Shown: piece after piece, positions 16,223-19,377 of the stretch | Layout: every line of letters begins with the position of its first letter | Position numbering within the stretch: position 1 is the stretch's first letter | DNA from: a virus | Length of the DNA: 43,724 nt | IMG/VR virus record: IMGVR_UViG_3300028802_000003 | Span: 1 to 43,724 of that record | Reading direction: 5' to 3' (one strand) | Program-made: the position numbers and the translations under genes | Notes under the pieces: model-generated | Database searches by the model: none | Seen by the model: only the letters and a program-made list of their open reading frames with translations | What the model was told of the DNA's origin: nothing

Positions 16223-16575
16223 GCGAGCGCAAGGATGGTGGCCCGGCTTGCGTGCGTTCTGCGGTCGAGGAGGAGGAGTTGCCATACGTCTACGCCGCTG
16301 AACTGGCGGGCGAAGGGACGCAGCACGTTATCAAGTCGAAGGATCACATCCGGGTCGTGAAGGCGCTGGAAGCCACGCTCGCGGAAGCGGAGCAGGCGTT
16401 CGACGGGCAGATGATCCGCGCCAACGTCCTGTCGCGCGACAACGACGCCCTGCGCGCAGAGAACGAGGCGATGAAGGCCGTCCTGTCCGAAGCCGGGATC
16501 ACGGTCGAGAAGGTGGACGGCGGCTACCGCTGGAAGCGGACCCCCGCGCCCGTCGAGCGGAAGGGGGAGGAGTGA
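16219..16575 (+). CDS. Coiled-coil protein, 118 aa
   Basis: GTG 16219 overlaps the upstream TGA. After a charged start, residues about 40-95 have a heptad-like pattern of Leu, Ala and Glu (VVKALEATLAEAEQAF and onward), predicting a coiled coil, and the C-terminus is basic. The stop overlaps the methyltransferase start (16572). Function unknown. Confidence 0.55.
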   Translation: MSERKDGGPACVRSAVEEEELPYVYAAELAGEGTQHVIKSKDHIRVVKALEATLAEAEQAFDGQMIRANVLSRDNDALRAENEAMKAVLSEAGITVEKVDGGYRWKRTPAPVERKGEE

Positions 16576-18152
16576 AATATGGCAGCACGTTCTCGGGGAT
16601 CGGGGGACTCGACGCCGGGCTCCACCGAGCCGGACACCAGGCCGTCTTCCTCTGCGAGCGCGACCCCTGGCGGCGGGAGATCCTCGCCCTCCGGTTCCCC
16701 GGGGTCCCCATCTTTGACGACGTTCGTGAAGTCACAGAAGGCGCACTCCGCCGACGACTGCGAGAGGTGGGAGCAGGGCGACGTGGCGCCGACGTTCTCA
16801 CCGAGGGACGGGTCGGCGCCCTCGACGGTGATCGCGATAGAGGCGGTCGGCCGGAAGATGAGCGGCGGGCCGGAGGTGGGCCTGGGGGTCCGGGAGGGGG
16901 GTCCGATGTTCACGCTGGACCGGGAGAGCCATCACGCCGTGGCGGTGTTCGCGCAGAACCAGCGCGACGAGCTCCGGGACCTGGGGGATCTGGCGCCGGC
17001 GTTGAATGGGCCGGGGACCCACCAGCAGGCGATGGTCTACACCTCAAAGTCCCTGCCGACAGACTCGCGGATCGCGGAGGAGATCGCGCCGACGCTGCAG
17101 GCGGCGCAGTCGGAGAGCCGGGGCGGGACGGCGGGACCCTTGATCTTCTCGTCGGAGGATTCCCCTGCCAGGATGTCTCCGTCGCCGGCAAGCGGGCCGG
17201 GTTCAAGGGGGCGCGGTCGAGCCTCTTCCACGAGTTCGCCCGAATCGCAGGAGAGCTTGTTCGCCCCGGAGGATACGTTCTGGTCGAGAACGTCCCGGGT
17301 CTTTTCAGTTCCCATGGGGGACGGGACTTCGGTACCGTCCTCGGGGCGCTGGCCGACCTCGGGTTTCACGATCTCGCCTGGCGAGTTCTCGACGCCCAAT
17401 TCTTCGGAGTACCCCAACGTCGGCGGCGGGTGTTCATCCTTGCGCGACGTGCTCGAGGCCGACGTTGCGCCGAAATACTTCTTGAGCCAGAGAGCCGCGG
17501 CGGGGATCCTCCGACGCGCGCAGAAGCGCGGGAAGGCGTTGCCGGAACACTTGGAAGCCGCACTCCGGGCGGTGGGATGCGAACCACCGACCTCGACGGA
17601 CACGGAGCCTACGTCGTGAAGCCGGAGGCTCCCGAGGTCGCGCGCTCGCTCAACTCGCAGCGAGATGGCTACAACGACGGCAGCGACCAGACCTACGTCG
17701 TCCCCGCCCTCACGTCGAAGATGGCGAAAGGAACCGGCGGGCCGGCGGGGGATGAGTGCCAGAACCTCGTCCGCACCTTCAACGTCACGCCCGAGGGCGG
17801 CCAGGGCGCGGACCTGCGGGCGACCGAGACGGACACCTCGCTCTGCCTCTCGTCGTTGAACGGACAGGCGCATGACCGGGTGACGCTGGCCGTCGAGGAT
17901 CCCCGGGCCTTCAACTCCTACCAGCGGACAGAGGGTGAGGTGACGACGCCGATCCGGGCCGGGTCGCAGGAGGGCGTCGGGGTCCGCTTGAGCGCCGGCG
18001 TCCGGCGGCTGACGCCCACCGAGTGCGAGCGCCTCCAGGGACTCCCCGACGGCTGGACCCTGCCGGGCGCGGACTCCAAGCGCTACGCGGGCCTCGGGGA
18101 CGCCGTGACGGCAAACGTCGCCGAGTGGATCGGCCGGAGGCTCGAGCGATGA
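16572..18152 (+). CDS. dcm: C5-cytosine DNA methyltransferase with an atypical insert, 526 aa
   Basis: Motif I (FSGIGGLDAG, residues 7-16), motif IV with catalytic Cys199 (GGFPCQDVSVAGKRAGF), motif VI (ENV, 239-241), motif VIII (QRRRRVF from 282), a target-recognition-type region, motif IX (RRLTPTECERLQGLPDGW) and motif X (YAGLGDAVTANVAEWIG) occur in order, so the enzyme should be active. It transfers a methyl group from S-adenosylmethionine to cytosine, probably to evade host restriction. Oddly, residues about 57-190 lose all family likeness and become Gly/Arg-rich, while another frame reads sensibly there (see 16579). Confidence 0.88.
   Translation: MKYGSTFSGIGGLDAGLHRAGHQAVFLCERDPWRREILALRFPGVPIFDDVREVTEGALRRRLREVGAGRRGADVLTEGRVGALDGDRDRGGRPEDERRAGGGPGGPGGGSDVHAGPGEPSRRGGVRAEPARRAPGPGGSGAGVEWAGDPPAGDGLHLKVPADRLADRGGDRADAAGGAVGEPGRDGGTLDLLVGGFPCQDVSVAGKRAGFKGARSSLFHEFARIAGELVRPGGYVLVENVPGLFSSHGGRDFGTVLGALADLGFHDLAWRVLDAQFFGVPQRRRRVFILARRARGRRCAEILLEPESRGGDPPTRAEAREGVAGTLGSRTPGGGMRTTDLDGHGAYVVKPEAPEVARSLNSQRDGYNDGSDQTYVVPALTSKMAKGTGGPAGDECQNLVRTFNVTPEGGQGADLRATETDTSLCLSSLNGQAHDRVTLAVEDPRAFNSYQRTEGEVTTPIRAGSQEGVGVRLSAGVRRLTPTECERLQGLPDGWTLPGADSKRYAGLGDAVTANVAEWIGRRLER
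16579..17619 (+). CDS. Second long frame inside dcm, possible overlapping gene, up to 346 aa
   Basis: This +1 frame stays open for 1,041 bases. Its first 50 codons look like a shadow of motif I. From about 16735 to 17140 it reads like natural protein (SADDCERWEQGDVAPTF, then GVREGGPMFTLDRESHHAVA, then FAQNQRDELRDLGDLAPALN), resembling inserts of phage methyltransferases. Over motifs IV-VIII it gives SSEDSPARMSPSPAS and then KYFLSQRAAAGILRRAQKRG. I recall these as a phage protein family usually found as a separate gene next to dcm. The true start is unknown. It may be overprinting, a frameshift product, or partly a GC-driven shadow. Confidence 0.4.
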   Translation: MAARSRGSGDSTPGSTEPDTRPSSSASATPGGGRSSPSGSPGSPSLTTFVKSQKAHSADDCERWEQGDVAPTFSPRDGSAPSTVIAIEAVGRKMSGGPEVGLGVREGGPMFTLDRESHHAVAVFAQNQRDELRDLGDLAPALNGPGTHQQAMVYTSKSLPTDSRIAEEIAPTLQAAQSESRGGTAGPLIFSSEDSPARMSPSPASGPGSRGRGRASSTSSPESQESLFAPEDTFWSRTSRVFSVPMGDGTSVPSSGRWPTSGFTISPGEFSTPNSSEYPNVGGGCSSLRDVLEADVAPKYFLSQRAAAGILRRAQKRGKALPEHLEAALRAVGCEPPTSTDTEPTS

Positions 18153-18970: not shown

Positions 18971-19032
18971 CCGGGGCGCAGGGTCGGGGATACTTCTTGG
19001 GGAAGCAAACCCTCGGCCCGTTCCATCCCCGG
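18971..19032 (+). ncRNA. Y-RNA-like element 1 (62 nt, short hairpin insert)
   Basis: The outer helix CCGGGG/CCCCGG (18971-18976 with 19027-19032) encloses the conserved CGCAGGG-side loop, an inner helix CGGGG/CCTCG (18985-18989 with 19011-19015), and the shared sequence ATACTTC after the inner 5' strand. The insert is about 13 nt and folds with the flank into CTTC/GAAG. The inner helix differs from the other copies by a C-G to G-C swap that keeps pairing, supporting a real structure. A CTTTGCAAAG palindrome lies just downstream. Confidence 0.6.
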
Positions 19033-19052: not shown

Positions 19053-19159
19053 GAGGGGCGATAGGCCGGGCTACTTCTGGCCGCGGTAATGCGCTGTAAG
19101 GGTTGAAATCCCAGGTATAGAGCCCGAAAGGGACCGCCTGGCCGACCTAAGATCCCCTC
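19053..19159 (+). ncRNA. Y-RNA-like element 2 (107 nt)
   Basis: The outer helix is GAGGGG/CCCCTC (19053-19058 with 19154-19159) and the inner helix CCGGG/CCTGG (19066-19070 with 19137-19141). CTACTTC follows the inner 5' strand. The insert of about 60 nt contains a T-arm-like hairpin (GGG-TTGAAAT-CCC) and a GAAA tetraloop hairpin (CCC-GAAA-GGG), but I cannot complete a tRNA from it. The outer helix sequence differs from its neighbours on both strands while still pairing. Confidence 0.6.
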
Positions 19160-19167
19160 ATAAATTC

Positions 19168-19298
19168 GCGGGGCGTAGATCCGGGTTACTTCTCATTTCA
19201 AGAGCGTTGTTGCAGGTTCGAGTCCTGTCGGAGGCCTTCGGGCTTTCGTGGCGCAATTGGTAGCGCACGTCCGTCTCCTGGGTCGCCTTCATCCCCGC
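19168..19298 (+). ncRNA. YrlA-type Y RNA with permuted tRNA-like module (131 nt)
   Basis: The outer helix is GCGGGG/CCCCGC and the inner helix CCGGG/CCTGG (19181-19185 with 19277-19281), with TTACTTC after the inner strand. The insert holds, in order: an anticodon-arm-like ATTTCAAGAGCG; a T arm (GCAGG-TTCGAGT-CCTGT, 19212-19228); an acceptor-like stem capped by a UUCG loop (CGGAGGCC, TTCG, GGCTTTCG, 19229-19248); and a D arm (GCGC-AATTGGTA-GCGC, 19251-19266). This 3'-half-before-5'-half order with a closed acceptor is how bacterial YrlA RNAs mimic tRNA. Ro60 is encoded 370 bases downstream. Confidence 0.72.
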
Positions 19299-19310
19299 AT
19301 AGCCGACATC

Positions 19311-19377
19311 CCGAGGCGTAGGGCCGGGCTACTTCGCCTGTTAAGCGGAATCCGTACCTGGCTCGCTTTATCCTCGG
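19311..19377 (+). ncRNA. Y-RNA-like element 4 (67 nt)
   Basis: The outer helix is CCGAGG/CCTCGG (19311-19316 with 19372-19377), a double change relative to the other copies that preserves pairing. The inner helix is CCGGG/CCTGG (19324-19328 with 19357-19361). CTACTTC flows into a hairpin TTCGC-CTGTTAA-GCGGA that looks like a tRNA-Asn anticodon arm. There is no T arm. This is the last element, 28 bases upstream of the zinc-ribbon gene. Confidence 0.6.

What the first reader, a model, noticed from the sequence alone, without database searches (positions are those of the whole stretch)
19168..19298. Circularly permuted tRNA with a UUCG-closed acceptor stem inside one Y-RNA-like element
A T arm (19212-19228) is followed by an 8-bp acceptor-like stem closed by a UUCG loop (19229-19248) and then a canonical D arm (19251-19266). 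The 3' half precedes the 5' half and the two acceptor strands are complementary, so this is not two unrelated tRNA fragments. An ATTTCAA anticodon-loop-like segment (Glu-type TTC) lies just upstream. It fits YrlA mimicry of tRNA elbow recognition by tRNA-modifying enzymes. It could also yield a real tRNA if the shell were removed.
Basis: partly seen in the sequence, partly recalled or inferred. Interest (0 to 1): 0.85.

Follow-up and report, generated by a model that had tools for sequence, protein, structure and literature searches.

The report
Phage Y RNA carrying permuted tRNA
A phage encodes a small RNA whose head is a complete transfer RNA rearranged end to end, including its anticodon arm, capped so that it cannot carry an amino acid and mounted on the kind of stem that Ro60 proteins bind; about 150 relatives found here show the same design with varied anticodons.

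Summary
In a virus contig, 19168-19298 folds as a Y RNA stem carrying an anticodon-arm-like hairpin (loop AUUUCAA), T arm, 8-bp acceptor closed by UUCG, and D arm. A Ro60 gene begins 367 bases downstream. The element is one of four tandem Y-RNA-like elements.

The order T arm, capped acceptor, D arm is already known: Rfam YrlA matches 19205-19269 (E=6.4e-5). Rfam's YrlA model has no anticodon hairpin. Homologues show that one is often present: 89 of 123 phage-set heads have a 7-nt-loop hairpin where an anticodon arm belongs (shuffles 30.6±3.9), with U33 in 84/89, A or G at 37 in 84/89, A38 in 78/89, and a covarying stem. Bacterial heads agree (63 of 112; shuffles 25.7±4.1). A covariance model built without this window finds 19178-19276 at E=1.5e-17. 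Put back in normal order, the head is called tRNA-Glu(UUC).

Best reading: a Ro60-tethered tRNA mimic, not a tRNA gene, since the cap leaves no CCA end. Decoying anticodon-reading enzymes is possible but untested. New variant of a known kind. The founding YrlA papers could not be read here, so earlier description of the anticodon arm is unchecked.

The parts
19168..19298 (+). E3: whole Y RNA, outer stems plus permuted tRNA head
   Evidence: Fold; Rfam YrlA E=6.4e-5; R1 E=1.5e-17
19168..19185 (+). E3 5' strand of the Ro-type stem: P1 19168-19173, P2 19178-19185 (pair with 19293-19298 and 19277-19284)
   Evidence: Pair probabilities 0.98-1.0; repeated in E2 and E4; Ro60 binding itself inferred
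19187..19192 (+). UACUUC motif; its UUC is also the 5' side of the anticodon stem
   Evidence: Shared by E1-E4 and by homologues
19190..19206 (+). Anticodon-arm position: 19190-19194 / loop 19195-19201 AUUUCAA (anticodon UUC 19197-19199) / 19202-19206; 3 contiguous pairs plus one U-G
   Evidence: Pair probability 0.52-0.56; homologue statistics and covariation; R1
19212..19228 (+). T arm, loop TTCGAGT
19229..19248 (+). Acceptor-like stem, 8 bp, closed by UUCG 19237-19240
   Evidence: covarying in homologues
19251..19266 (+). D arm GCGC-AATTGGTA-GCGC
19277..19298 (+). E3 3' strand of the Ro-type stem: 19277-19284 and 19293-19298
18971..19032 (+). E1: Y-RNA-like element with a short head (possible CUUGGGG loop, ambiguous; the fold prefers a different hairpin)
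19053..19159 (+). E2: Y-RNA-like element with a non-tRNA head; stems 19053-19058/19154-19159 and 19064-19071/19136-19143, read from the sequence; the minimum-energy fold keeps only the outer one
19311..19377 (+). E4: Y-RNA-like element whose head is only an anticodon-type hairpin, 19333-19337 / CUGUUAA 19338-19344 / 19345-19349 (Asn GUU)
   Evidence: Pair probabilities 0.73-0.89; R1 9.3 bits, E=0.75; hairpin-only heads enriched
19665..21164 (+). Ro60 (Rsr) homologue, TROVE plus vWA domains, start codon chosen by eye (GTG)
   Evidence: Pfam TROVE E=2.7e-16, vWA_Ro60 E=5e-7; phrog_850 E=2.1e-37; DxSxS residues kept

Best explanation
E3 is a phage-encoded Y RNA of YrlA type. Its outer stem most likely binds the Ro60 homologue encoded just downstream. 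Its head is a complete circularly permuted tRNA, opened between the D arm and the anticodon arm (about position 26/27), where the Ro-type stem is inserted, and sealed at the acceptor by a UUCG tetraloop. Shown here: the architecture, its homology, the anticodon arm as a family feature, and linkage to Ro60. Inferred: the head offers a tRNA-like surface to enzymes that bind or modify tRNA (TruB and DusA for known YrlA) and tethers a partner such as PNPase to Ro60, without being aminoacylated or decoding.
For: Rfam YrlA match. R1 built without the window, 73.5 bits, E=1.5e-17 over the full model including the anticodon arm. Anticodon hairpin in 89/123 phage-set heads against 30.6+-3.9 shuffled and 63/112 bacterial heads against 25.7+-4.1. 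Pairs 30-40 and 31-39 form in 44 and 43 of 50 heads, shuffle maxima 36 and 31. ARAGORN/235 de-permuted heads, 128-145 with the anticodon region shuffled, and E3 as tRNA-Glu(ttc). 85 of 104 loci carry a Ro60 frame, all 103 heads there on its strand. Tether role and DusA/TruB modification of known YrlA: PMC8394870.
Against: E3's own anticodon hairpin is weak (3 contiguous pairs, probability about 0.55) and a CGU/ACG closure as in Rfam's model competes (about 0.12). E3 is below Rfam's YrlA cut-off (31.4 of 69 bits). No expression, binding or modification data; no close relative of this phage was found.
Confidence: 0.8

Rival explanations
1. Anticodon decoy: the Y RNAs display anticodon arms, often a different one in each element, to absorb or mislead host anticodon nucleases or other anticodon-reading enzymes. 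This sharpens the best explanation and does not exclude it.
For: Anticodons differ in all 11 loci with two or more anticodon-bearing heads. Among heads with 80-99% similar bodies U33 is identical in 100% and A38 in 94%, but the triplet in 12%. Hairpin-only heads such as E4 are enriched, 17 against 4.1+-2.0. Competitive inhibition of an anticodon nuclease was suggested for YrlA (PMC7790460).
Against: No nuclease link was found or sought in these genomes. The same design occurs in bacterial chromosomes. Salmonella YrlA is not cleaved by the RecA-dependent nuclease (PMC7790460). Variable triplets could also mean that the triplet does not matter.
Confidence: 0.3
2. Reduced YrlA: E3 has no true anticodon arm; AUUUCAA is a chance loop and the head closes by CGU/ACG as in the Rfam model.
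For: Rfam aligns E3 that way. E3 can form 4 such pairs. The hairpin is only 3 contiguous pairs.
Against: R1 aligns E3 through the anticodon arm. Loop letters and spacing match the family consensus. The hairpin is the likelier of the two in the fold, about 0.55 against 0.12.
Confidence: 0.15
3. A functional circularly permuted tRNA gene, matured by excision of the Ro stem, ligation, and opening of the acceptor loop.
For: The order is a true circular permutation, and the rearranged sequence is called tRNA-Glu(ttc). A minority of relatives keep N-CCA at the expected offset inside the cap: 14 of 121 longer caps, against 4 at each neighbouring offset.
Against: E3's cap is UUCG on an 8-bp helix with no CCA. 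Most caps in the family are 3-4 nt, often UUCG or GNRA. The Ro-type stem is conserved. Known permuted tRNA genes are from algae and an archaeon and need splicing motifs (PMC3978253).
Confidence: 0.04
4. Chance or debris: neighbouring tRNA fragments, or a random fold.
For: The fold is not unusually stable for its composition.
Against. A scan with the Ro motif scrambled gave 80 loci, 69 of them new; of 32 heads there that passed the cloverleaf filters, 21 in fact had TACTTC overlapping the control motif.
Confidence: 0.01

Closest known systems
YrlA, bacterial Y RNA (Rfam RF02553; Salmonella YrlA structure 6CU1)
   Same: Ro-type stem, then T arm, capped acceptor and D arm in permuted order; encoded beside a Ro60/Rsr gene.
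   Different: Rfam's consensus closes the head with a 4-bp stem and has no anticodon hairpin. E3 and most homologues found here carry a 7-nt-loop hairpin at the anticodon-arm position. E3 scores below the family cut-off.
Circularly permuted tRNA genes of algae and archaea (Soma 2014, PMC3978253)
   Same: 3' half precedes the 5' half and the acceptor strands pair across a joining sequence.
   Different: Those are matured into charged tRNAs through splicing and end processing. E3 has a tetraloop cap without CCA and a Ro-type stem at the junction.
tmRNA (tRNA-like domain)
   Same: Non-translating RNA that mimics part of a tRNA and carries tRNA modifications (PMC8394870).
   Different: tmRNA is charged with alanine (established knowledge); E3 has no free acceptor end and no tag reading frame was sought or expected.
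Phage-encoded tRNAs that evade anticodon nucleases
   Same: Phage RNA displaying an anticodon loop.
   Different: Those are functional tRNAs (PMC11455837); E3 could not be aminoacylated without cleavage and CCA addition.

Membership tests
YrlA (bacterial tRNA-mimic Y RNA) | T arm, capped acceptor and D arm in permuted order | tested here: met
   Rfam alignment over model 24-84; fold; R1
YrlA (bacterial tRNA-mimic Y RNA) | Long basal stem formed by the 5' and 3' ends | tested here: met
   Two stems with pair probabilities 0.98-1.0
YrlA (bacterial tRNA-mimic Y RNA) | Gene near a Ro60/Rsr gene | tested here: met
   Ro60 at 19665-21164
YrlA (bacterial tRNA-mimic Y RNA) | Score at or above Rfam's gathering cut-off (69 bits) | tested here: not met
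   31.4 bits. This is a curation cut-off and not a biological feature; phage homologues scanned also fall below it. So: works like YrlA and is homologous to it; a divergent variant, not a member by Rfam's cut-off.
YrlA (bacterial tRNA-mimic Y RNA) | Binding of Ro60 by the stem | not testable with these tools
   Needs a binding assay
YrlA (bacterial tRNA-mimic Y RNA) | Modification by DusA and TruB | not testable with these tools
   Needs RNA analysis
Circularly permuted tRNA gene | 3' half before 5' half with complementary acceptor strands | tested here: met
Circularly permuted tRNA gene | Complete cloverleaf including an anticodon arm | tested here: met
   De-permuted E3 called tRNA-Glu(ttc) by ARAGORN, with ACCA appended by the script; E3's anticodon stem itself is weak
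Circularly permuted tRNA gene | Joining sequence that allows a free, CCA-bearing acceptor end | tested here: inconclusive
   4-nt UUCG cap, no CCA; joining sequences of 1 nt are reported in an archaeon (PMC3978253), and CCA can be added later, so processing is unlikely but not excluded
Circularly permuted tRNA gene | Splicing (bulge-helix-bulge) motif at the junction | not tested
   The junction is occupied by the Ro-type stem; no dedicated motif search was run

The most novel reading that the evidence does not exclude
A widespread class of phage and bacterial Y RNAs carries complete permuted tRNAs whose anticodon triplets vary on a conserved scaffold. Tandem copies display different anticodons, some reduced to the anticodon hairpin alone as in E4, and act with Ro60 as decoys or sensors for enzymes that read anticodons.
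Probability: 0.3. Interest if true: 0.9.

Novelty: new variant of a known kind. Interest (0 to 1): 0.7.

Why it matters
Bacterial Y RNAs are described as mimicking the D arm, T arm and acceptor of tRNA. If many also carry an anticodon arm, then enzymes that read the anticodon loop (modification enzymes, nucleases) become candidate partners, which is directly testable. It also bears on how YrlA arose, since a whole permuted tRNA looks closer to a starting point than the reduced form. Annotation is affected: Rfam misses these RNAs and labels some of them as tRNAs.

Tried and rejected
Ro60 protein search in IMG/VR: no close relative; the Ro60 alignment was too diverse to scan with. DNA search of phage records with the array: no match. 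ARAGORN and Rfam at gathering score on the window: nothing. Of the nine loci found with the strict Ro-motif pattern, several look like chance matches. Functional tRNA reading: judged very unlikely for E3 (tetraloop cap, no CCA). Correlation of anticodon with D arm or variable-loop length: only suggestive, not pursued. E2 as a 16S rRNA mimic: 13 of 14 nt match, E=0.22, with stronger matches among controls, so not claimed. A resemblance of the L150/L218 heads to RNase P RNA was seen by eye and not supported by BLAST. The founding papers (Chen 2014, Wang 2018, Sim and Wolin 2018, Sim 2020) are not held; what they say about anticodon arms is unknown to me.

Full report
What is there. The window is a 43,724-base virus record with terminase, portal and head genes. 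A Ro60 homologue lies at 19665-21164: Pfam TROVE E=2.7e-16 and vWA_Ro60 E=5e-7, phrog_850 E=2.1e-37. Directly upstream, on the same strand, four tandem elements (E1 18971-19032, E2 19053-19159, E3 19168-19298, E4 19311-19377) share a stem with a GCGnAG...UACUUC-type motif, with variant spellings in E1 and E2. No sigma-70-type promoter upstream of the array and no intrinsic-terminator pattern was found by a simple consensus scan, so transcription is undetermined.

Checking the finding. E3's minimum-energy fold contains two outer stems, a 3-bp hairpin with a 7-nt loop (AUUUCAA), a T arm, an 8-bp acceptor closed by UUCG, and a D arm. The fold energy is ordinary for the composition (z=-1.21), so energy alone proves nothing. 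Homology does: Rfam YrlA (RF02553) matches 19205-19269, model positions 24-84, E=6.4e-5 and 31.4 bits, under the curated cut-off of 69. ARAGORN sees no tRNA in the window.

The known part. T arm, capped acceptor and D arm on a Ro60-binding stem is the YrlA design, described as a tRNA-like domain modified by DusA and TruB, with Rsr tethered to PNPase (PMC8394870). Y RNAs near Ro60 have been proposed in phages before (PMC12282133), and Ro60 with a tRNA-like partner has been noted for jumbo phages (PMC7824862). The Rfam consensus closes the head with a 4-bp stem and has no anticodon hairpin.

Homologues. Ro60 occurs in 39 phage records at under 30% identity. YrlA-like hits below the cut-off lie near it in several, with the UACUUC motif in some and variants in others. 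After requiring a T stem, a D stem and a complementary acceptor, 123 unique heads remained in the phage set, the window included, and 112 in the bacterial set. Of 104 phage-set loci, 85 carry a Ro60 reading frame in the stretch held, and all 103 heads there are on its strand. A control scan with the motif scrambled found 80 loci, 69 of them new; of the 32 heads there that passed the filters, 21 in fact contained TACTTC overlapping the control motif.

The anticodon arm. Between UACUUC and the T arm, a hairpin with a 7-nt loop sits at tRNA spacing in 89 of 123 phage-set heads (shuffles 30.6±3.9; four or more pairs 61 against 13.7±3.4). Loops of 3-6 and 8 nt are not enriched; rises at 9 nt, and at 11 nt for three pairs only, are compatible with the same helix with inner pairs open, which is my reading. 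Loop letters are those of an anticodon loop: U33 84/89, A or G at 37 84/89, A38 78/89. Bacterial heads agree: 63 of 112 against 25.7±4.1, four or more pairs 48 against 10.5±2.6. Because the search pattern fixes UUC at 27-29, only 30-40 and 31-39 can show covariation. In 50 dereplicated heads chosen by spacing and not by pairing, these form standard pairs in 44 and 43, against shuffle maxima of 36 and 31 in 2,000, and slid controls fail. Alignment A2 (36 heads, from which I had dropped most heads lacking the arm, so its anticodon-helix figure leans upward) gives 95.5% of cells paired against 69.2% shuffled.

Back to E3. Model R1, built from A2 without the window, matches 19178-19276 over its full length at 73.5 bits, E=1.5e-17. 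The only other match is E4 at E=0.75, aligned through the anticodon hairpin with the other arms skipped. Rearranged into tRNA order, with ACCA appended by the script, E3 is called tRNA-Glu(ttc). Over all heads, 196 of 235 are called, against 128-145 with the anticodon region shuffled and 25 in natural order. The weak point is E3's own hairpin: 3 contiguous pairs at probability about 0.55, with a competing CGU/ACG closure at about 0.12.

Two layouts. Of 83 heads without the hairpin, 55 can pair the 3' anticodon strand with bases after the D arm, which is the Rfam layout; so can 60 of 151 heads with the hairpin, so the two are not exclusive. Short heads like E4, in which only an anticodon-type hairpin remains, are enriched (four or more pairs 17 against 4.1±2.0); other loop sizes rise somewhat there too, so this is weaker evidence than for full heads.

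Anticodons. In all 11 loci with at least two anticodon-bearing heads the anticodons differ. Among head pairs with 80-99% similar bodies, U33 is identical in 100% and A38 in 94%, but the triplet in only 12%. Heads were required to have U33 for this comparison, and conserved tRNA letters inflate body similarity, so it compares rates and does not prove diversifying selection. Positions 36-37 are coupled (U-A 49, G-G 21, C-A 8 in the phage set), and position 36 differs from that of 589 tRNAs in the same phage stretches (p=3.5e-6), a test that ignores relatedness.

Function. E3 is unlikely to be a tRNA: the acceptor is sealed by UUCG with no CCA. The best-supported reading is a Ro60-bound tRNA mimic that presents a tRNA surface and tethers a partner. 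Whether the anticodon is bait for anticodon-reading enzymes is open. Variable triplets, different anticodons within one array and hairpin-only copies favour it; the lack of any nuclease link and the presence of the same design in bacterial chromosomes argue for caution. Competitive inhibition of an anticodon nuclease has been suggested for YrlA (PMC7790460).

Novelty. New variant of a known kind: a YrlA-like RNA with an anticodon arm. None of 14 homologous loci scanned at gathering score is recognised as YrlA, and two heads are overlapped by tRNA calls. I could not read the founding YrlA papers, so the novelty claim rests on the Rfam model and on the papers held.

Noticed in passing
L215 (- strand, about 2390-2575) and L237 (+ strand, from about 6848): Two Chryseobacterium-type Y-RNA-like heads begin with a near-exact copy of 23S rRNA 1910-1939 (97% over 30 nt, E=2e-8; 84% over 32 nt, E=1.2e-5), the helix 69 region: a possible rRNA-mimic Y RNA. 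Organism of L237 was not checked.
   Followed up: partly
window 19072-19135 (E2 head): The E2 head holds GCCGCGGTAAT, as in the 16S rRNA 530 loop (13 of 14 nt, E=0.22, not significant), and a 12-mer GGGTTGAAATCC that also occurs in the L215 head. E2's function is unexplained.
   Followed up: partly
Acceptor caps of heads such as L054, L146, L174, L178, L203: Some heads with longer caps keep N-CCA right after the 7 acceptor bases (14 of 121, against 4 at each neighbouring offset): a possible relic of, or route to, a processable permuted tRNA.
   Followed up: partly
L043 2305-2372 and L058 5679-5746: Rfam at gathering score calls a tRNA overlapping these Y RNA heads, while no head in the 14 loci scanned is called YrlA: a likely annotation error in public phage genomes.
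   Followed up: partly
L019 2473-3012, L021 4214-4862 (reverse-strand coordinates), and other loci: Arrays of several Ro-motif elements with different heads in one virus contig are common: 104 of 161 loci or strands scanned had two or more, by a lenient filter.
   Followed up: partly
Loop positions 36-37 of anticodon-bearing heads: Nearly all loops are U36-A37 or G36-G37, and A36 and C36 are rarer than in tRNAs of the same phage stretches. These are the contexts of t6A37 and m1G37 modification (own knowledge); cause unexplained.
   Followed up: partly
window 16572-18152: C-5 cytosine DNA methyltransferase gene (Pfam E=4.7e-49) just upstream of the array.
   Followed up: no
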